A stretch of DNA of 64,000 nt from Chloracidobacterium thermophilum B (lineage in GTDB: Bacteria; Acidobacteriota; Blastocatellia; Chloracidobacteriales; Chloracidobacteriaceae): assembly GCF_000226295.1 (NCBI RefSeq), contig NC_016024.1, forward strand, positions 1,657,501 through 1,721,500, read 5' to 3'. The notes under the pieces were generated by a model, which ran no database searches, was not told the origin of the DNA, and saw only the letters and a list, made by a program, of their open reading frames with translations. Each line of letters opens with the position of its first letter. Positions within the stretch are counted from its first letter, which is position 1. The position numbers and the translations under genes were made by a program. This document shows, one piece after another, positions 4,794 through 63,941 of this stretch.

Positions 4794-5570
4794 TCATGGG
4801 TGTCCCCCTGGACGCCGCGCCCCCCGGTCTTCACGGTTCATACGCTCTTCGAGTTCGTCCCACATGCGCTGCATTTCGGCCTCGACGACGCGGAAGTTCT
4901 TGTACTTGCGCCGGATACGCCAGCGCCGCCAGGGTCCCGTCACCCACTCCCAAGTCGCCCGCAGTGGCGCCACCTCACCGCCCCGGATGGTCAGAAAACC
5001 AATCCCCAGGGCCCACAGGGCTGAAACGGAATCCGGGTAGCCATACAGCAGAAAGACGATGTCTATCGCCGCTGAAACATAGAAAATCGTGCGCCCGCGC
5101 AACAACACGAAATTGAAAAACGTCGGGGTGTTCCACAGGCGCGCAGCAAAGACGCCCACCATCAGGGAAAACAGCGTGGCGGAACTCGCGGCAAAAACAA
5201 ACGAGGGAACCGGCGAAGGCAGGAACTGGCGTACCACCAGCGCCATCAGAAAGGTGCCCAGGTAGGCGGCCGCCCCGCCCAGGAAGCACAGCGCCAAAAA
5301 CCGCCCCGTGCCGAGCATGCGCTCCACAACGTTGCCGAAAAGGTAAAGCACAAGCAGCCCGATCAACCACCCGAACGGCGTCAGCGGGGTAATCGTCGCC
5401 GTGAAAAACTGCCAGACCGCACCCTGGAGAACTGCTTCCGGCAAAAAGAAAAACGGCACCGGCACGAGCGCCCGCACAATGACCACCACGGTCGTTGCTG
5501 CCATGAGGAACAGCGTACCAGGCAGTGGGCCACCGACATTCACCGGCAGATCATCGAAAACACGGCGCAT
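4794..5570 (-). CDS. Rhomboid-like membrane protein without catalytic motif
   Basis: About 258 residues with five to six membrane segments. It has the rhomboid-fold layout: a first segment, then WQFFTATITPL (like the family's WR..T..F.H loop), then GNVVERMLGTGRFLALCFLGG (like GxxLExxxGxxrfL). The serine-protease motif GxSG, expected in the fourth segment, is replaced by FAASSATLF, and no His is seen in the last segment. It is therefore more likely an inactive rhomboid-like (DUF1751/TMEM115-type) protein than an active intramembrane protease. The tail is charged and cytoplasmic, rich in Arg and Glu. The frame is open to 5606; the ATG at 5570 is preferred. Function unknown. Confidence 0.7.
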   Translation of the reverse strand: MRRVFDDLPVNVGGPLPGTLFLMAATTVVVIVRALVPVPFFFLPEAVLQGAVWQFFTATITPLTPFGWLIGLLVLYLFGNVVERMLGTGRFLALCFLGGAAAYLGTFLMALVVRQFLPSPVPSFVFAASSATLFSLMVGVFAARLWNTPTFFNFVLLRGRTIFYVSAAIDIVFLLYGYPDSVSALWALGIGFLTIRGGEVAPLRATWEWVTGPWRRWRIRRKYKNFRVVEAEMQRMWDELEERMNREDRGARRPGGHP

Positions 5571-5790
5571 AGAGCAGACTGGGAAGCCCCTGGCAAAGTG
5601 GAGCATCTGCCGGACGGCATCGCACGGGCCGGCAGAAACGACGTGACTATGGCACGGAAACGCAGTTCAAGGCAATGAAACCTGTTTCCTTCTGCCCACT
5701 TCATCCCAGGGTTTTCATGTCGCTCAGGAACGACATAGAATGCGGCGGCCTCAGTTTCGTGAACGAGCCCCCTTCCGTGGAGCGCACGTT

Positions 5791-6294
5791 ATGCTGACCA
5801 CAATCAATCTGCACCAATGGATTGCAGACCACCGGCATCTTCTCCGCCCACCGGTGGGGAATGCGCAGATATGGAAAGACCGGGAATTTATGGTGACAGT
5901 CGTGGGCGGCCCCAACCAGCGCAAGGACTACCACATTGATCCCGGTGAAGAGTTCTTCTACCAACTCGAAGGCGACATGACCCTGCGCCTGATTGAAAAC
6001 GGGGAGTTCCGGGATTTGCCCATCCGCGAAGGTGAAATCTTCTTGCTTCCGCCCCTGGTGCCGCATTCCCCCCAGCGCGGCCCGAACACCCTGGGGTTGG
6101 TCATCGAGCGAATCCGACGCCCCGACGAACAGGACCGGTTTGAATGGTACTGCGATCGCTGCGGGCATCGGTTGCACGAAGTCGCCCTTCACGTCACCGA
6201 TCTCACAACCCAACTCAAGCCGCTGTTCGATGCGTTCTGGGCTGATGAGCGTGCCCGCACCTGTACGGCTTGTGGCCACGTGCTTCAACCCTGA
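5791..6294 (+). CDS. nbaC: 3-hydroxyanthranilate 3,4-dioxygenase
   Basis: A 167-residue cupin that opens the ring of 3-hydroxyanthranilate to 2-amino-3-carboxymuconate semialdehyde, the precursor of quinolinate (kynurenine route to NAD) or of 2-aminomuconate in tryptophan degradation. Visible iron ligands are His48 and Glu54 in DYHIDPGEEFFYQLEGDM and His92 in LVPHSPQR; Arg44 precedes them. The C-terminus carries the two CxxC pairs of the bacterial enzyme (Cys121/124 and Cys158/161), a rubredoxin-like iron site. The ATG at 5791 is chosen because GGAG lies 9 bases upstream and the family begins there. No other kynurenine-pathway gene is in the window. Confidence 0.9.
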   Translation: MLTTINLHQWIADHRHLLRPPVGNAQIWKDREFMVTVVGGPNQRKDYHIDPGEEFFYQLEGDMTLRLIENGEFRDLPIREGEIFLLPPLVPHSPQRGPNTLGLVIERIRRPDEQDRFEWYCDRCGHRLHEVALHVTDLTTQLKPLFDAFWADERARTCTACGHVLQP

Positions 6295-6354
6295 CCGGCC
6301 TGGACTTGGCCAGCCCGGACAACAACGCCGCGCAGCTCCAACCTCACAACCCGT

Positions 6355-8403
6355 ATGAAAGCGAGCTACAACTGGCTTGAAACCTACGTCAAGCCCGATC
6401 TCCCGGCTCAGGAATTAGCCCAGCGGTTCACGGCTGTCGGGCTGGCCGTGGATGCCGTCACTCCTGCCGACGGCGACTTCATCTTTGATTTTGACCTCAC
6501 CACGAATCGCCCGGACGCGCTGTGCCACTTCGGTTTGGCGCGGGAGGCGGCCGTGCTGACGGGCACCCGGTTGTCTTTTCCTGACATCCACCTGACGGAG
6601 CAAGCCGTGTCCGGCGGACCAGCAGTGCACGTCCAGATAGCTGCGCCTGATCTGTGCCACCGCTATGCAGCGCGCCTTATCCAAGGCGTACGGGTTGGCC
6701 CGTCGCCGGACTGGCTGGTACGCCGTCTGGCCGCGGTCGGGCAGCGCAGCATCAACAACATCGTGGATGTCACCAACTTCGTGCTGCTCGAACTGGGACA
6801 CCCCCTGCACGCCTTCGACTTCGAGCGGCTGGCCGGACGGCGCATTGTGGTTCGCACGGCCCAACCCGGCGAAACACTTGTGACGCTCGACGGGGTGCAA
6901 CGGGCGCTCACGCCGGACATGCTGATGATTTGCGATGCCGAACGCCCGGTGGCCGTCGCCGGCATCATGGGGGGTGCGGAGAGCGAGATTTCCGCCGTAA
7001 CCACGCAGGTCCTGCTCGAAAGCGCCTGGTTTGCGCCGGCCACGGTACGCCGCACGGCACACCGACTCGGGCTGCACACTGAGGCATCACGCCGCTTTGA
7101 ACGCGGCGCGGATTTTGAAAACGTCCGGCGCGCTCTTGACCGCTGCGCTCAGCTTATTGTCGAGGTCGCCGGCGGGGTCGTGGTTGGGGGGCCGGTTGAC
7201 GTCATCGCCAGAACCCGGACGCCCATCACCGTCCGCCTTCGCCATGCGCGCATTGTGGCGCTGACCGGCGTTGAAGTCGCACCTTCCAGAGCCGCTGACA
7301 TCCTGACGGGACTGGGCTTCGAGCTGGTGACGGAAGATGAAGGCGAAAGTGAGTGGATTGTGCCGAGCTTTCGGGTGGATGTGAGCATCGAGGAAGACCT
7401 CATCGAAGAGGTTGTGCGGCACGTGGGCTATGACGCCATTCCGGCAACGCTCCCCGGCTGGAATGACGCCGGTGAGTATCTGCCCGGCGAAGAGCGGCGA
7501 CGGACACTGCGCCAGACGCTTCTGGCCCACGGCTTCCACGAAGCCATCTCGTTTAGCTGGTGCTCCGGCGAGATGTTGGCCGCCACCGGCGCGCCCGGCG
7601 GGCGGCGGATTGCCAATCCGCTCGACCAGCAGGAAAACGAACTGCGCACCTCCCTGCTTCCGGGGCTCCTGACGGCCGTGGCGCGCAACTTCCGCTTCGG
7701 CACCGAGGATGTCCGGCTGTTCGAGATGGGCAAAGTGTTCCATACCGTGGATGGTCAACTCACCGAGAAGGAATATCTGGCACTGGCTTTGTCTGGCCGC
7801 GCCCTGCCGGAGGACTGGCGCGGCCAACCGGCGGCTGAGAGTTTTCACAGCCTGAAGGGCATGCTGGAACTCCTGTGCGATGCCGTGCGCTGCCCTGCTG
7901 TCACCATCACTGCCCCGGCAGCGGACAGTGCGGTTACGGGATTTCTGCCCGGACAGGTCGCCCTGCTCCAGATTGCCGATCAGCCCGTGGGACGGCTTGG
8001 GCGCATCAGCCCGGCCTTGGCTGCGCACTTTGACTTCAAGCTGCCGGTCTATGTGGCCGAACTCGAACTGGCAGCGCTGCTGGCCGGCAGGACCACCTTT
8101 ACCGCTTACCGCCCACTCCCCCGCTACCCACGGGTCGAACGCGACATTTCGGCGTTGTTCGACGCCGCCCTTCCCTGGGCCAGTATTCAGGACTTCATCC
8201 ACAGCCTGGCCATTCCAGAACTGGAACAGGTCCGGCTGCGGGATATTTTCACCGGCGCGCAGATTCCAGCCGGACAGCGGGCTATAACGCTCAATTTGTG
8301 GTATCGTGCAGCCGATCGCACGCTCACAGACGAAGAAGTGTCCGAGCGTCATCGCCAGGTGGTGGAGGCGCTGTGCACGCACTTCGGCGCGACGATTCGC
8401 TGA
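6355..8403 (+). CDS. pheT: Phenylalanine-tRNA ligase beta subunit, short form
   Basis: The beta subunit of the alpha2-beta2 PheRS, which charges tRNA(Phe). It starts MKASYNWLETYVKP, then shows the B1 helices, the B3/B4 core (INNIVDVTNFVLLELGHPLH), the B5 domain, the catalytic-like module and the C-terminal anticodon-binding FDX-ACB domain (YPRVERDISALF). At 682 residues it is about 110 shorter than the roughly 790-residue E. coli protein. The gap is local: after FTAVGLAVDAV (residues 27-37) the sequence runs almost directly into FDLTTNRPDAL (about 47). The EMAP-II-like tRNA-binding B2 domain is therefore missing. pheS is not adjacent. An antisense frame of 452 codons is a codon-bias shadow. 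Confidence 0.95.
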   Translation: MKASYNWLETYVKPDLPAQELAQRFTAVGLAVDAVTPADGDFIFDFDLTTNRPDALCHFGLAREAAVLTGTRLSFPDIHLTEQAVSGGPAVHVQIAAPDLCHRYAARLIQGVRVGPSPDWLVRRLAAVGQRSINNIVDVTNFVLLELGHPLHAFDFERLAGRRIVVRTAQPGETLVTLDGVQRALTPDMLMICDAERPVAVAGIMGGAESEISAVTTQVLLESAWFAPATVRRTAHRLGLHTEASRRFERGADFENVRRALDRCAQLIVEVAGGVVVGGPVDVIARTRTPITVRLRHARIVALTGVEVAPSRAADILTGLGFELVTEDEGESEWIVPSFRVDVSIEEDLIEEVVRHVGYDAIPATLPGWNDAGEYLPGEERRRTLRQTLLAHGFHEAISFSWCSGEMLAATGAPGGRRIANPLDQQENELRTSLLPGLLTAVARNFRFGTEDVRLFEMGKVFHTVDGQLTEKEYLALALSGRALPEDWRGQPAAESFHSLKGMLELLCDAVRCPAVTITAPAADSAVTGFLPGQVALLQIADQPVGRLGRISPALAAHFDFKLPVYVAELELAALLAGRTTFTAYRPLPRYPRVERDISALFDAALPWASIQDFIHSLAIPELEQVRLRDIFTGAQIPAGQRAITLNLWYRAADRTLTDEEVSERHRQVVEALCTHFGATIR

Positions 8404-8514
8404 CTGTGTGACAACGATCATACCGGGCACATCGGGCCGGGACACATTGGGTCAAGCCGGACAGAAGAAATCATCGAACCAGAACCAGAAGACGACCGAG
8501 CCAGAGGGAAAGCC

Positions 8515-8799
8515 GTGACGACGCTCAACGGAATGGAGAAATTCAATCACCTGGAAGACAAACTGTACCGCATCGTCGAATACGCCAAGCACCTGCGCCA
8601 GGAAAAAGAATCGCTGGAACGTGAAGTCGCCGCACTCAAACGCGAGGCCGCGGCGCGCGCCGAAGAAAATGAACGGCTCAACCAGCGCCTGCACCAGATG
8701 CTCAATGAACGGGATGCCATCAAGAACAAGGTCGAGGCCATGCTGGATGCCATTGCCCTGGTGGAACCGGAGCTGACGGAAGCCGCACGACGTGGATGA
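8515..8799 (+). CDS. ZapB-like coiled-coil protein
   Basis: A 94-residue protein, almost wholly helical with heptad periodicity (HLEDKLYRIVEYAKHLRQEK, then Glu/Arg/Leu-rich repeats to about residue 75). It starts with GTG at 8515 after AGAGGGA. Length, coiled-coil character and position just upstream of zapA suggest a division-ring factor of the ZapB type. Sequence similarity to E. coli ZapB is not clear by eye, so the role is inferred from context. Confidence 0.65.
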   Translation: MTTLNGMEKFNHLEDKLYRIVEYAKHLRQEKESLEREVAALKREAAARAEENERLNQRLHQMLNERDAIKNKVEAMLDAIALVEPELTEAARRG

Positions 8800-8982
8800 A
8801 CCAATCCTTTCCGACCTGTGGGTGACCCAGGCACGGACATAGAACAGGTCAGCCACAGCAGGCCACACCTTCGGATGGAGGAGCCGGGAAACAAGCCGGA
8901 GCACAAACAACCACGGTATTCTGGGGCTGAATCGGCGGGGGTTTATCCTTGTAATCCAGTGCGAATGTAGAGGTTATGTCCA
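8800..8982 (+). other. Intergenic spacer with nested inverted repeats, possible ncRNA
   Basis: 183 bases between the zapB-like gene and zapA. GACCTGT (near 8814) and ACAGGTC (near 8844) form a perfect 7-bp inverted repeat. Outer segments CCGA and CCCAG pair with CTGGG and TCGG near 8924-8937, giving a bulged closing stem. In many bacteria the 6S RNA gene lies beside zapA, so a structured RNA is possible. I cannot confirm it, and the spacer could equally hold the zapA promoter and leader. Confidence 0.25.
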
Positions 8983-9321
8983 ATGGCAAATCCACGCGAC
9001 GCTGGCACACAACCGGTTGAAGTCCGTATCTACGGGCAGGTCTATAACATTCGCGGTGACGGCAACAGCGCCTACATTTCCGAGCTGGCAGCCTACGTTG
9101 ACCGCAAGATGCAGGAGGTGATGAGCAGCACCAACACGGTGGACAGCCTGCGGGTGGCCATCCTGTCGGCGCTCAACATTGCCGATGAGCTTTTCCAGGC
9201 CAACCGACGCATCGAGCAACTCGATGCCATGGTTGGGGAACGCAGCCATGACTACGCCAACCTTATTGACTCCGTGCTCCGCAAGGAAAAGTCCCCAACG
9301 CCCGAAACCAAGGCCCAGTAA
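8983..9321 (+). CDS. zapA: Cell division protein ZapA
   Basis: ZapA binds FtsZ and cross-links filaments at the division site. The 112 residues match the family. The N-terminal globular domain has PVEVRIYGQVYNIRGD, then YISELAAYVDRKMQEV, where beta strands are followed by the first helix. The second half, ALNIADELFQANRRIEQLD, is the long coiled-coil dimerisation helix. It follows a ZapB-like coiled-coil gene and a structured spacer. Confidence 0.9.
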   Translation: MANPRDAGTQPVEVRIYGQVYNIRGDGNSAYISELAAYVDRKMQEVMSSTNTVDSLRVAILSALNIADELFQANRRIEQLDAMVGERSHDYANLIDSVLRKEKSPTPETKAQ

Positions 9322-9371
9322 CTGCAATGCATTTCCGGCCGGTCAGCGACGACTCACACACGAGGCTGCCT

Positions 9372-9737
9372 ATGACACCCGAACAGTTTGACACCATCAA
9401 CCGCCTGTTTCAGTTGACGTTCCAGGTTGGAGACCGGCTTGGCAGCGAGTCAAGCGACCCCGCCCAACTGCTGCTTACGTCGCAGCCAGACCTGGAGGGT
9501 TGTCAGGCGTACTTTCCGCCCGACTACACCCTGGAGCCACTTGAAGCCGAACGCTGGCAGGAGCACCTGGCCGATGCCCCCGCCCTGGCCGAAATGGTCT
9601 GCGTACTGGCGTCGTCGCCTCTGACCTACGGGCTATACCGGCAGGATGAAGTGTCCTGGTGGGTCTGCGCCTTTTGGGCGGCCCGGGAGCAACTCGGCAC
9701 CAACCTCCTGTTTCGCGCCCACCGGGTCGAAACGTAA
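9372..9737 (+). CDS. Hypothetical protein
   Basis: A 121-residue acidic protein with no recognised domain. It begins MTPEQFDTINRLFQ and contains a Trp-rich stretch (VSWWVCAFWAARE) near the C-terminus. The ATG at 9372 is preferred to an upstream one at 9327 because AGG lies just before it. Codon use is like the neighbouring zapA, which ends 50 bases upstream in the same direction. The gene ends just before the insertion element at about 9785. Confidence 0.5.
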   Translation: MTPEQFDTINRLFQLTFQVGDRLGSESSDPAQLLLTSQPDLEGCQAYFPPDYTLEPLEAERWQEHLADAPALAEMVCVLASSPLTYGLYRQDEVSWWVCAFWAAREQLGTNLLFRAHRVET

Positions 9738-9796
9738 GCAGGTCACAATACGGGGCACTCTCCTGTCGCTTCGCGGGATTTGACATACTCCCCTGC

Positions 9797-11116
9797 CTAA
9801 AGGCAGGGGATTCTTGTTCTTGGTTCTGCGAGCGCACTTACTTCATCAGGTTGCCCCTCTAAAGCAGCGGTGCATCTCTCCCCAAGCGTTCCCTCTTTCG
9901 AGGCAGTTCCCTTTTGCCCAAAGGTACTGTAGTGGCAAGTAGCGAATAGCGAACAGGGAGCGAGTAGCGAGCAGCGAGTAGCGAGTAGCGAATTACCTTC
10001 CGAACCACTCGCCACTCGCCACTCACCACTCGCCTCTGAACCACTCGCCACTCGCCACTTGCTTCCTTATTGAGGACAACTATGGGTTCTGGTGGATAGG
10101 GTTTTTACTACCATAATGCCCACAGTTACTACAGTCCTGTGTGGTGTACTGCGGCGGTACGCTGACGACTGCCTTGTCCCACACCTTGCCGTAGTAGTCC
10201 AGCCACGCAGTGAATTGAGACCAGCCAGCATCATGAATGGATTTGGCAAGATGATGATTTTTGACCAGGTTCTTCACCTGCAAGTCTTCATACGCCACGA
10301 CATCGTGAGATGCCACCACGCACCGTGCCTGCTTAATCGCCCAGTCTTTACGCTGGCGTTGGACTTTCAGATGTACTTTGCCCAGTCGCTTTTCTTTTGC
10401 TTGTGGTAGTTCTTGGATTGAGGTTTCGCCCCTTTCTTGAACTTCATACTCAACCTGCGCTGGTGGTGCTTTAACCTCTTCTCTGCTTTCCGCAAAAACT
10501 TAGGACACTCTACAGGGTTGCCGTTCTGGTCGGTGTAGAAAGCCTTCAAGCCCAAGTCAATGCCAATCACATTGCCTGTGTATGCTCCCTGCTCTTTGCG
10601 CTCCACATCCAAGCAGAACTGGGCATAGTACCCATCTGCCCTGCGTATCACCCGCACCCGATTGATTTTGGAGTTTAGGATATGGTGTCTTGCCTCACCA
10701 TTGCAGTACAGAGCAAACGAGCCAGCATTGAAGCCATCGGTGAACGAGATAGTCATCCCATCCCCTGACAGCTTCCAGCCAGATACCTTGTATTCCACAG
10801 AACGGCAATGCTTCTTGAACTTGGGATACCCTTTCCTGACCGCCTTGTTTCTGCAGTTGGTATAGAACCGGGAAATGGAAGCCCAAGCTCGCTCTGCACT
10901 TGCCTGCCTTGCCGCTGAGTTTAACTTCCTGGCAAAGTCAAACTCTTTGGCCAGGTCTTTGCAGTGGGCATAGAGAACAGCTTTGTTGACGCTCTTGTTG
11001 TCCATCCAGTACCGCACACATTTGTTTCTGACAAACTGTGCGGTACGGATGGCTTCATCCAGAGCCTGATACTGCTCTGCTGTCCCGTTGAGTAGCTTGG
11101 CTTCCATTACTCTCAT
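9797..11116 (-). pseudogene. tnpB: tnpB, RNA-guided nuclease of IS605 family, broken
   Basis: The first piece (11116-10367) holds the N-terminal helical/zinc-ribbon-like part and the RuvC-I Asp in VIGIDLGLKAFYT. The frame is lost near 10395, where restoring one A in the run CAAAAGAAAAGC would rejoin KQKK to KRLGKVHLKVQRQRKDW. The next piece (to about 10110) has the RuvC-II Glu in VAYEDLQVKNL and CSNCGH, the first half of the zinc finger. A second frame change leads to KTLSTRTHSCPQ and a stop. After an inserted repeat array the gene's C-terminal tail resumes (YSTFGQKGTASKEG to TRIPCL, stop inside the right-end hairpin). The third catalytic Asp and second CxxC are missing, so the nuclease should be dead. 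Confidence 0.8.
9931..10060. repeat. Inverted pair of heptamer tandem arrays inside tnpB
   Basis: Arm 1 (about 9931-9993) is made of variants of GCGAGTA with a 7-base period. Arm 2 (about 10005-10060) is made of variants of CCACTCG/CGCCACT with the same period. Arm 2 is largely the reverse complement of arm 1, with one mismatch per unit where TA faces CA. The transcript could fold into a long bulged hairpin around the centre AATTACCTTCCGAA. The array sits between the zinc-finger part and the C-terminal tail of tnpB, so it arrived or expanded after the element did. Confidence 0.85.
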
Positions 11117-61992: not shown

Positions 61993-62176
61993 CAGTGCCC
62001 TACCAGACATCACCACCGGGATGCCCTACGATACCACCAAATCCCGCGCCTGATTTCCAGATGCAAAGCATCCCGGCGGCGGGTTACACTGCCGGACGCA
62101 GCCACCGGCGCGCGGCAGCCACGGTTTCACCCGGCCGCGTGCAACCTTGTCCCGGCATCCTACACGGCGCACGGTC

Positions 62177-63031
62177 ATGAACTTCCTGCGCTTGCTTTTC
62201 GATTGCAGCCCCCTGCTCATCGCTACGGCACACGGTTACGGCGCGGCCTGGCTGGCGGTCAGGATGCTCTTTCGCCCGCTCAAGCCGGTTTATGTCTTTG
62301 GCTGGAAACTGCCGTTTACGCCGGGACTGCTTCCGGCCGAACGGGAGCGTTTCGTGGATGCCCTGGCCGGCGTCATTGCGGAAAAGCTTCTGACGGCGGA
62401 CATCCTGGCGGCTGCCTTCCATGAACTCCGGCTGGACACCGACGTGGAACGGCTCGCCCGCTCGCGCTATGCCGAACGGTCGCAGCCCGACGCCCTGCTT
62501 CCGGCCGTCGCCGGGCGCATCACGGAGATGCTGACCACACTCAAAAACTCCTCCGAGGCCAAGTGGCGTATTGCCCACGAACTGCGCGCCGTGGTCATCC
62601 GGCGGCTCGAACGCGATTACCACCCGGCCGTCCGCCAGACGGCGACCTTTCTGGTGGGCGATGCCCTGGTGTACCGCATTGTGGACCGCGCTATCAACAA
62701 CCTGGCTGACCAGCTCTCCGAAAGTATGGCCATCCGGGAAGTCATGGACGAAGCCCTGCGCCGCCTGCCGGAAGCCATCTTCACCAGCGAGCGCCCCCTG
62801 CAACAGCGCATTGCCCAGGACATCGTCCGTCACCTCAGCGAACGCCTCGACATCAAGGGCATCATCAAGCGGCGTTTTGAGACCTTCTCGAATGACATCT
62901 TTGAGAGTCTCGTCTATGAAACAGCCGGACGGGAACTGCGGGGCATCATGGTGTTTGGAACGTATGTCGGTTTTGCGGTCGGCGTCCTCCAAACCGGCGT
63001 CAACCTCTGGCGCACTCTGGCCGGTCATTAG
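62177..63031 (+). CDS. DUF445-family membrane-associated protein
   Basis: 284 residues. The family start is present: a short hydrophobic helix then GYGAAWLAVRMLFRPLKPVY and GWKLPFTPGLLPAERERF, matching the G-x-x-TN(A/W)xAxxMLFrP and PGxIPkxR motifs of DUF445/YheB proteins. A long helical domain with repeated amphipathic segments follows, and a C-terminal membrane segment (MVFGTYVGFAVGVLQTG) ends it. These proteins may have coiled structures at the membrane; the function is unknown. A longer frame opens at a TTG at 62147. Confidence 0.88.
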   Translation: MNFLRLLFDCSPLLIATAHGYGAAWLAVRMLFRPLKPVYVFGWKLPFTPGLLPAERERFVDALAGVIAEKLLTADILAAAFHELRLDTDVERLARSRYAERSQPDALLPAVAGRITEMLTTLKNSSEAKWRIAHELRAVVIRRLERDYHPAVRQTATFLVGDALVYRIVDRAINNLADQLSESMAIREVMDEALRRLPEAIFTSERPLQQRIAQDIVRHLSERLDIKGIIKRRFETFSNDIFESLVYETAGRELRGIMVFGTYVGFAVGVLQTGVNLWRTLAGH

Positions 63032-63081
63032 CTGCCAGCAGCCACTCCCACGGCACGGCCTCGGCCATACCCGCCGGTGGA

Positions 63082-63155
63082 TGCGCCCGGAGAGACTCGA
63101 ACTCCCAACCCTCAGATCCGAAGTCTGATGCTCTATCCAATTGAGCTACGGGCGC
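63082..63155 (-). tRNA. tRNA-Arg (anticodon TCG)
   Basis: The minus-strand copy runs from GCGCCCG at 63155 to CGGGCGC then discriminator A at 63082, 74 bases. A 7-bp acceptor stem, a D-arm with AGCTCAATTGGATAGAGC, an anticodon stem TCAGA/TCTGA with loop CTTCGGA (anticodon TCG, reads CGA), and a T-arm GGGAGTTCGAGTCTCTC are visible. CCA is not encoded. It lies between the DUF445 gene and the DUF2499/DUF3593-like gene. Confidence 0.95.
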
Positions 63156-63227
63156 AGACGCGGCCGGCGTTCTGCCGTATAGCGCGCCGCGGCCGGGCTT
63201 TTCAAGCGTCTGCCAAGGGAACGGTTT

Positions 63228-63941
63228 TCAGGCTGGGACAGTCGTCGCCAGCGCTGGCGCAGTTTCCAGCGACCGCAATGACCGCCGCAACCCAAGCACC
63301 AGCACCAAATTGGCCACCGTCATCGTGCCCTCGGCAATGCCGTGCAGCCAATCCACATGGGTCAATGACGGCGCGCGATAGACCGTCCGTGCCACAATGC
63401 TTAGGGCAATGGTGACGACGACAAACAGGATGAGCAGCCCGTACCCGACAATCGTCTGGACGTTGAAGGCCGCGCGGTCCCACCGCCGGTTGACCGCCAG
63501 AAAGACCACGAACAGCAGGTAGGCCAATCCGGCCGACTGAATCATTGCGCCCCGCGTCCCGCCATAGGGCAGCCAGGCCCGCGCCAGCAGAAAGCCGCCG
63601 ACAGTCAGCGTCGCCACGGCCGTGGCGGCCAGAACGAACCGTGGGTAGCGCCGCGGCCATTCGCGCAGATGCAGCGCGGCCGTCGCCAGCCCAACACTTC
63701 CGATGAGTGTCAGCAGTTCGTGCGTACGTGGAATCCACATCAGGCTGGTGTTGTCATTGGTGGCATGCCAGGCCAGGACGCACATCCCGGCGCCCCAGTG
63801 CGGCAGCATCGCCACGGCCAGCCGCCGGATGTCTGTCCGGCCCAGCACTGTTCCCAACCGCCACACCAGGGCGATGGCCAGCGTCCACTCGGTCACGCTG
63901 GCAATGTGAATGCCCCATACCGGGGGTGACAGCAAACTCAT
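63228..63941 (-). CDS. DUF2499/DUF3593-like fused membrane protein
   Basis: 237 residues with about six membrane segments. The N-terminal half (1-115) has VWGIHIASVTEWTLAIALVW, RRLAVAMLPHWGAGMCVLAW and HELLTLIGSVGLATAA, close to DUF2499 of cyanobacteria and plants. The C-terminal half has VDWLHGIAEGTMTVANLVLV followed by LGLRRSLR, close to DUF3593. The two domains seem fused in one chain, whereas I recall them as separate genes in cyanobacteria. Function is unknown; a link to photosynthetic membranes is suggested only by family distribution. Family assignment is by eye. Confidence 0.7.
   Translation of the reverse strand: MSLLSPPVWGIHIASVTEWTLAIALVWRLGTVLGRTDIRRLAVAMLPHWGAGMCVLAWHATNDNTSLMWIPRTHELLTLIGSVGLATAALHLREWPRRYPRFVLAATAVATLTVGGFLLARAWLPYGGTRGAMIQSAGLAYLLFVVFLAVNRRWDRAAFNVQTIVGYGLLILFVVVTIALSIVARTVYRAPSLTHVDWLHGIAEGTMTVANLVLVLGLRRSLRSLETAPALATTVPA

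What the first reader, a model, noticed from the sequence alone, without database searches (positions are those of the whole stretch)
63228..63941. Cyanobacterial/plastid-type DUF2499 and DUF3593 domains fused in one acidobacterial protein
Both halves carry the key motifs of families otherwise typical of oxygenic phototrophs. A fusion suggests they work together, perhaps in membranes that hold pigments. If this organism is a phototrophic acidobacterium, the gene could be a shared phototrophy factor.
Basis: partly seen in the sequence, partly recalled or inferred. Interest (0 to 1): 0.55.

Follow-up and report, generated by a model that had tools for sequence, protein, structure and literature searches.

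The report
Fused membrane factor of chlorophyll phototrophy
A small membrane protein in a light-harvesting acidobacterium joins in one chain two uncharacterised proteins that photosynthetic cyanobacteria make separately, and its pattern of keeping and loss suggests a dedicated helper of the photosynthetic apparatus, most likely of the photosystem-I type.

Summary
The 237-aa ORF at 63228-63941(-) matches Pfam DUF2499 (E 1.4e-27, aa 4-90) and DUF3593 (E 2.9e-21, aa 133-222) in one frame. Among 396 sampled Acidobacteriota genomes both occur in the same 3, all one genus, the same 3 that hold the phototrophy marker FMO. In 194 Cyanobacteriota, 86 of 87 genomes with full PsaA/PsaB matches have both families; none of the other 107 has an intact pair. 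Cyanobacteria encode them separately, often adjacent (61 of 86; none fused). Two genomes that fit UCYN-A (PSII lost, PSI kept) keep both; in four genomes with PSI lost or broken, DUF3593 is broken (3) or not found (1), in one of them although a paper reports most chlorophyll genes intact. Sequence and a moderate-confidence model give a 3+1+3 helix design in which invariant His, Asp and Glu of both halves fall at one membrane face. Best reading: an accessory factor for making or maintaining type-I reaction centres. Its chemistry is unproven. A diatom protein with both domains is already listed (PMC3478156), so this is a variant of a known, uncharacterised kind.

The parts
63228..63941 (-). DUF2499-DUF3593 fusion gene, 237 aa, seven predicted TM helices, N-out/C-in by charge
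63672..63932 (-). DUF2499 half (aa 4-90), TM1-3; invariant W9, H12, E18, W58, H59
   Evidence: Pfam PF10693; conservation over 47 cyanobacterial rows
63573..63644 (-). extra helix TM4 (aa 100-123) between the two halves, outside both Pfam domains
   Evidence: predicted helix, (block means of pLDDT 53-62 there); Pfam limits
63276..63545 (-). DUF3593 half (aa 133-222), TM5-7; invariant D197, H200, G201, A203, E204
   Evidence: Pfam PF12159; conservation
63078..63156 (-). tRNA-Arg(tcg), neighbour, not part of the system
62147..63031 (+). DUF445 protein, neighbour on the opposite strand, not part of the system

Best explanation
The gene encodes a dedicated factor of chlorophyll phototrophy: a seven-helix membrane protein made by joining two three-helix proteins that cyanobacteria make separately. 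Because both halves have the same orientation (N-terminus on the periplasmic/lumenal side), the fusion needs, and has, one extra linking helix (3+1+3). Invariant His/Glu of the DUF2499 half (H12, E18, H59) and Asp/His/Glu of the DUF3593 half (D197, H200, E204) map to helix ends on the same membrane face, so I infer one composite metal- or pigment-binding site that needs both halves. Most likely it assists the making or maintenance of type-I reaction centres (PSI in cyanobacteria, the PscA complex in Chloracidobacterium), for example by handling a pigment or cofactor at the lumenal/periplasmic side, without being a stable subunit. Shown: domains, fusion, adjacency, co-occurrence, loss pattern. 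Inferred: topology, shared site, link to the type-I centre. Unknown: the chemistry.
For: Co-occurrence with FMO in 3 of 396 Acidobacteriota and with full PsaA/PsaB matches in 86 of 87 Cyanobacteriota, against 0 intact pairs in the other 107. Natural experiments: G600 and G601 (1.49 and 1.44 Mb, fitting UCYN-A) lack full-length CP43/CP47 matches but keep full-length PsaA/PsaB and intact DUF2499 and DUF3593 (Pfam check of both in G600). G552 and G588 equal the EtSB and RgSB spheroid bodies to the base in genome size; with G634 and G635 they have absent or stop-ridden PsaA/PsaB, and DUF3593 carries stops in three and is not found in G635 (DUF2499 was not searched in G635). In RgSB 9 of 10 chlorophyll genes are reported intact while no functional photosystem genes were found (PMC5638926, passages), and there DUF3593 has five stops and DUF2499 is reduced to a 63-nt remnant. 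The pair therefore decayed with the photosystems, ahead of most of the chlorophyll genes. Plastid ycf49 (DUF2499) lies in the block petL-ycf49-ycf4 of cyanidiophytes and eustigmatophytes (PMC4603697, passage). The protein is not among the named subunits of the solved C. thermophilum reaction centre (PMC9751088, PMC10968294, passages), and PDB sequence searches gave nothing but one chance-level hit.
Against: Four draft genomes with PsaA/PsaB have no DUF3593 hit: G492 (also no DUF2499), G604, G612, G621. Assembly gaps are likely but not shown. The control Synechococcus elongatus rings for DUF2499 but not for DUF3593. Green sulfur bacteria and heliobacteria, which also have type-I centres, could not be searched; absence there would weaken a general type-I role. 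The extra copies next to bchE point rather to chlorophyll synthesis or low-oxygen growth. RgSB also lost bciB, so early loss of one pathway member is possible there too. In C. thermophilum none of six neighbouring proteins scanned is photosynthetic. The model is only moderate (mean pLDDT 70.3, pTM 0.65), so the shared site rests on topology, not on measured distances. The Acidobacteriota result is one genus, and the cyanobacterial contrast probably reflects few deep splits.
Confidence: 0.45

Rival explanations
1. A membrane factor of chlorophyll biosynthesis, acting near the Mg-protoporphyrin monomethyl ester cyclase step or delivering intermediates, with a separate low-oxygen copy paired with the anaerobic cyclase BchE.
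For: Second DUF2499-DUF3593 pairs lie directly upstream of bchE in two Pseudanabaena genomes, one Oculatella genome and a Pseudanabaena plasmid; these copies form one clade (98/96). G000, G096 and G396 among the fusion carriers have BchE.
Against: In RgSB 9 of 10 chlorophyll genes, chlE among them, are reported intact while the pair is broken. Only 3 of 14 bchE-bearing cyanobacteria have the pair within 1.5 kb of bchE, and these three genomes entered through the scan; among the other 72 genomes it is 0 of 11. G157 has the fusion but no BchE hit. 61 of 75 cyanobacteria searched, all with the pair, have no BchE match at E <= 1e-80.
Confidence: 0.25
2. A carotenoid enzyme, working like the two-part 3-TM + 3-TM lycopene cyclases (CrtYc/CrtYd, also known fused; recalled), acting on carotenoids of PSI-type centres.
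For: Same design logic: two three-helix proteins, also found fused; conserved acidic and His residues.
Against: No Pfam or NCBIfam hit to a carotenoid enzyme. Cyanobacteria and plants have other, known lycopene cyclases (recalled).
Confidence: 0.08
3. A general membrane protein of phototrophs (redox, ion or stress function) that is only statistically tied to photosynthesis.
For: In the few cyanobacterial neighbourhoods scanned, adjacent genes were mixed: glutathione synthase or a sugar kinase upstream, WD40-repeat kinases or others downstream.
Against: Decay together with PSI in reduced endosymbionts and absence from the 393 sampled Acidobacteriota outside the genus.
Confidence: 0.15

Closest known systems
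Ycf49 / DUF2499 (PF10693) of cyanobacteria and plastids
   Same: Full-domain match, same invariant W-IH-S-EW and WH motifs
   Different: Separate ~100-aa protein in cyanobacteria; here fused and joined to them by a very long branch (4.35 + 1.52 changes per column across the midpoint root); the DN that follows WH reads ND or DD in the five fusions aligned
DUF3593 (PF12159)
   Same: Full-domain match, invariant D-x-LHG-x-AE motif
   Different: Separate gene in cyanobacteria, just downstream of DUF2499 in 61 of 86 genomes
Thalassiosira pseudonana protein 38514 (both DUF3593 and DUF2499, multiple TM domains; PMC3478156, passage)
   Same: Both domains in one membrane protein
   Different: Eukaryotic alga; domain order and linker not seen by me; probably an independent fusion (inference)
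7-TM folds (rhodopsins, GPCRs, adiponectin receptor)
   Same: Seven-helix arrangement; best row Z 11.8 (a designed GPCR-like protein, rmsd 4.0, 195 aligned), adiponectin receptor Z 10.1, rmsd 6.1, 225 aligned
   Different: No Foldseek match with E <= 0.001; Z in the range common for helical bundles; no sequence kinship found

Membership tests
DUF2499 / Ycf49 (PF10693) | Pfam profile above the curated cut-off over nearly the full length | tested here: met
   96.2 bits against 22.1, positions 2-88 of 89
DUF2499 / Ycf49 (PF10693) | Residues invariant in cyanobacterial members | tested here: met
   20 of 33 columns conserved at 93% or more in 47 rows are the same in all five fusions, including W9, H12, E18, W58, H59; 13 differ, among them the D-N pair
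DUF3593 (PF12159) | Pfam profile above the curated cut-off over nearly the full length | tested here: met
   75.8 bits against 25, positions 4-87 of 88
DUF3593 (PF12159) | Residues invariant in cyanobacterial members | tested here: met
   18 of 39 conserved columns are shared, including D197, H200, G201, A203, E204; 21 differ, mostly in TM5 and TM6
Subunit of the Chloracidobacterium type-I reaction centre | Present in the solved complex | tested here: inconclusive
   Named subunits are PscA, B, U, V, W, X, Y, Z plus an unassigned 19-residue chain (passages); the one PDB sequence hit at E <= 1 is an acetylcholine receptor, E 0.3; loosely bound proteins may be lost in purification
7-TM metal hydrolases of the adiponectin-receptor kind | Zn site of three His and one Asp in the 7-TM core (recalled) | tested here: inconclusive
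   Structural alignment Z 10.1, not above unrelated rows; His and acidic residues conserved but geometry not measured

The most novel reading that the evidence does not exclude
DUF2499-DUF3593 is the enzyme or holdase that makes or delivers the 13(2)-epimer ('prime') chlorophylls of type-I special pairs: Chl a' of P700 in PSI (recalled) and Zn-BChl a' in Chloracidobacterium (PMC9751088, passage); that enzyme is unidentified as far as I recall. The composite His/Asp/Glu site would act on ring E, the ring that BchE or AcsF creates. This would account for retention with PSI when PSII is lost, absence from the solved reaction-centre complex, and low-oxygen copies beside bchE. A two-part membrane enzyme would have become one chain in the only acidobacterial genus found here with FMO.
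Probability: 0.05. Interest if true: 0.95.

Novelty: new variant of a known kind. Interest (0 to 1): 0.52.

Why it matters
Both families are nearly universal in the PSI-bearing cyanobacteria sampled, and DUF2499 is also encoded in some plastid genomes, yet I found no function for them: in the open-licence PMC library 3 papers hold DUF2499 or DUF3593 and 8 match ycf49 (in one, PMC6015050, the match is Ycf4 with a reference number), and none of the titles, abstract starts or passages I saw gave one. The fusion suggests that the two act as one unit, and its presence in an anoxygenic phototroph argues against a role specific to water splitting. Together with the UCYN-A-like and spheroid-body patterns this narrows the role to the PSI side, which gene knockouts can test.

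Tried and rejected
PSII or oxygen evolution as the role: rejected, since the pair is kept in G600 and G601, which lack full-length CP43/CP47 matches, and in an anoxygenic phototroph. Internal duplication (DUF2499 kin to DUF3593): no support (hhalign probability 0.1%). Viral or phage carriage: none found. Solved relatives: none by sequence (one search gave one chance-level hit, E 0.3) and no significant Foldseek match. Recent transfer from a sampled cyanobacterium: not supported; the five fusions form one clade (100/100) on a very long branch, and where they attach is unsure. A second structure job was not run: alignment A3 came out worse than A2. Occurrence in green sulfur bacteria and heliobacteria could not be tested: the single genome-contig scan used two exact peptide patterns and returned only 7 cyanobacterial loci, so its silence elsewhere means nothing. 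A search for a prime-chlorophyll epimerase in the paper library gave one irrelevant paper. A search for the recalled locus tag sll0608 found 0 papers.

Full report
What is there. The ORF at 63228-63941(-) encodes 237 aa. It matches Pfam DUF2499 (aa 4-90, E 1.4e-27) and DUF3593 (aa 133-222, E 2.9e-21), both well over their cut-offs; NCBIfam gives no family. The genome has 3,695,372 bases in two contigs, which fits Chloracidobacterium thermophilum B as I recall it. The named relatives are records titled Chloracidobacterium (two) and uncultured Blastocatellia (one), 85-89% identical in the best segment. The gene is under purifying selection (dN/dS 0.065-0.12 against three relatives; the near-twin G157 differs only at synonymous sites).

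Surroundings. Six neighbouring proteins were scanned with Pfam: a DUF445 protein and a transport permease on one side, and an ABC ATPase, a mechanosensitive channel, an FAD oxidoreductase and a UvrD/PD-(D/E)XK protein on the other; a tRNA-Arg lies next to the gene. None is a photosynthesis gene.

Distribution in Acidobacteriota. DUF2499, DUF3593 and the phototrophy marker FMO each occur in 3 of 396 sampled genomes, the same three, all of one genus. This is perfect co-occurrence but one evolutionary event. FMO was the only marker searched across the phylum.

Distribution in Cyanobacteriota. In one draw of 194 genomes (centre G401, itself a carrier) PsaA/PsaB is found in 88, DUF3593 in 88 and DUF2499 in 86. 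In G588 the PsaA/PsaB match is weak and full of stops. Of the 87 others with PsaA/PsaB (best E 0), 86 have both families; G492, a draft, has neither. In one of the 86, G516, DUF3593 is split by a group II intron. Of the 107 remaining genomes none has an intact pair; two have broken DUF3593 (G552, G588). In 61 of 86 the two genes lie on one strand in the order DUF2499-DUF3593, with 34-560 nt between the domain matches, and none looks fused.

Natural experiments. In the family of G588 (50 genomes, 11 of them also in the draw above) DUF3593 is found in 46, three of them with stop codons. Eleven chosen genomes were then searched for PSII and PSI. G600 and G601 (1,491,611 and 1,443,806 bases) have only a broken fragment (G600) or a partial match in a 347-aa frame (G601) to CP43/CP47, but full-length PsaA and PsaB; both keep intact DUF2499 and DUF3593 (Pfam check of G600). 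By size and PSII loss they fit UCYN-A; that UCYN-A lacks PSII and transcribes PSI is from PMC4804200 (passages). G552 (2,794,318) and G588 (3,020,309) equal the published sizes of EtSB and RgSB (PMC5638926, table passage). In them and in G634 PsaA/PsaB is absent or full of stops, DUF3593 carries stops, and DUF2499 is not found (G552), a 63-nt remnant (G588) or spread over two frames (G634). G635 has neither PsaA/PsaB nor DUF3593; DUF2499 was not searched there. In RgSB 9 of 10 chlorophyll genes are reported intact, bciB being broken, so the pair decayed earlier than most of that pathway. Against the pattern: the drafts G604, G612 and G621 have PsaA/PsaB but no DUF3593 hit, and the control Synechococcus elongatus gives DUF2499 but not DUF3593.

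Link to bchE. Second pairs in Pseudanabaena (two genomes and a plasmid) and Oculatella lie directly upstream of bchE and form one clade (98/96). BchE is found in 14 of 75 cyanobacteria searched; the pair lies within 1.5 kb in 3, and these three genomes were brought in by the scan, so among the other 72 genomes it is 0 of 11. A further second pair, in G465, is not near bchE. Of five Chloracidobacterium-type genomes three have BchE. G398, a metagenome assembly, and G157 have none, although PMC12816986 states that all strains have bchE (passage).

Anatomy. AlphaFold2 on 14 sequences gives seven long helices, counting 36-60 with its kink as one (mean pLDDT 70.3, pTM 0.65). Lys/Arg are 7 in the loops that would be inside and 1 in those outside, which puts the N-terminus outside and the C-terminus inside. 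Each half is a three-helix unit in the same orientation, and the fusion has an extra helix (aa 100-123) outside both Pfam domains, as such a join requires. Among 47 cyanobacterial rows H12, E18, H59, D197, H200 and E204 are invariant and shared by all five fusions. By topology all lie at or near the outer ends of TM1, TM2 and TM7. The two halves show no kinship to each other. Structure searches give only generic seven-helix matches.

Function. The common ground of PSI-bearing cyanobacteria, UCYN-A-like genomes and Chloracidobacterium is a type-I reaction centre with chlorophyll a; the Chloracidobacterium centre also holds Zn-BChl a' (PMC9751088, passage). The protein is not among the named subunits of that centre. 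I therefore favour an accessory factor for type-I centre biogenesis or upkeep (0.45) over a chlorophyll-synthesis factor (0.25). The broader claim that it is dedicated to chlorophyll phototrophy I hold at about 0.9.

Known or new. Both families are known but without function in anything I saw. ycf49 sits in a plastid block petL-ycf49-ycf4 (PMC4603697, passage), and a diatom protein with both domains is listed in PMC3478156 (passage). New here, as far as the searches show, are the acidobacterial fusion and the loss pattern that points to the PSI side.

Noticed in passing
L111 (G516), 5381-8533: DUF3593 gene split by a group II intron: reverse transcriptase/maturase ORF 5583-7370(-) and Rfam Intron_gpII at 5471-5549(-) between the two parts.
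   Followed up: yes
L004 (Pseudanabaena sp. ABRG5-3 plasmid), 5001-10266: Plasmid stretch with DUF2499, DUF3593, bchE and a psbA gene close together, possibly a low-oxygen photosynthesis island.
   Followed up: partly
G552 (L103), G588 (L104), G634 (L105): Broken remnants of DUF3593, and of DUF2499 in two of them, in spheroid-body-type genomes.
   Followed up: yes
G157: No BchE hit in this two-contig Chloracidobacterium genome, although a 2026 species paper says all strains have bchE (passages). That paper also says most C. aggregatum strains lack acsF, while a 2021 paper says all strains can use both (passage).
   Followed up: no
Synechococcus elongatus control: Rings for DUF2499 but not for DUF3593, unlike the 86 sampled carriers of both families; loss, divergence or a miss of the first look.
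   Followed up: no
L093, L095, L097: bchE here carries a C-terminal response-regulator-like domain.
   Followed up: no
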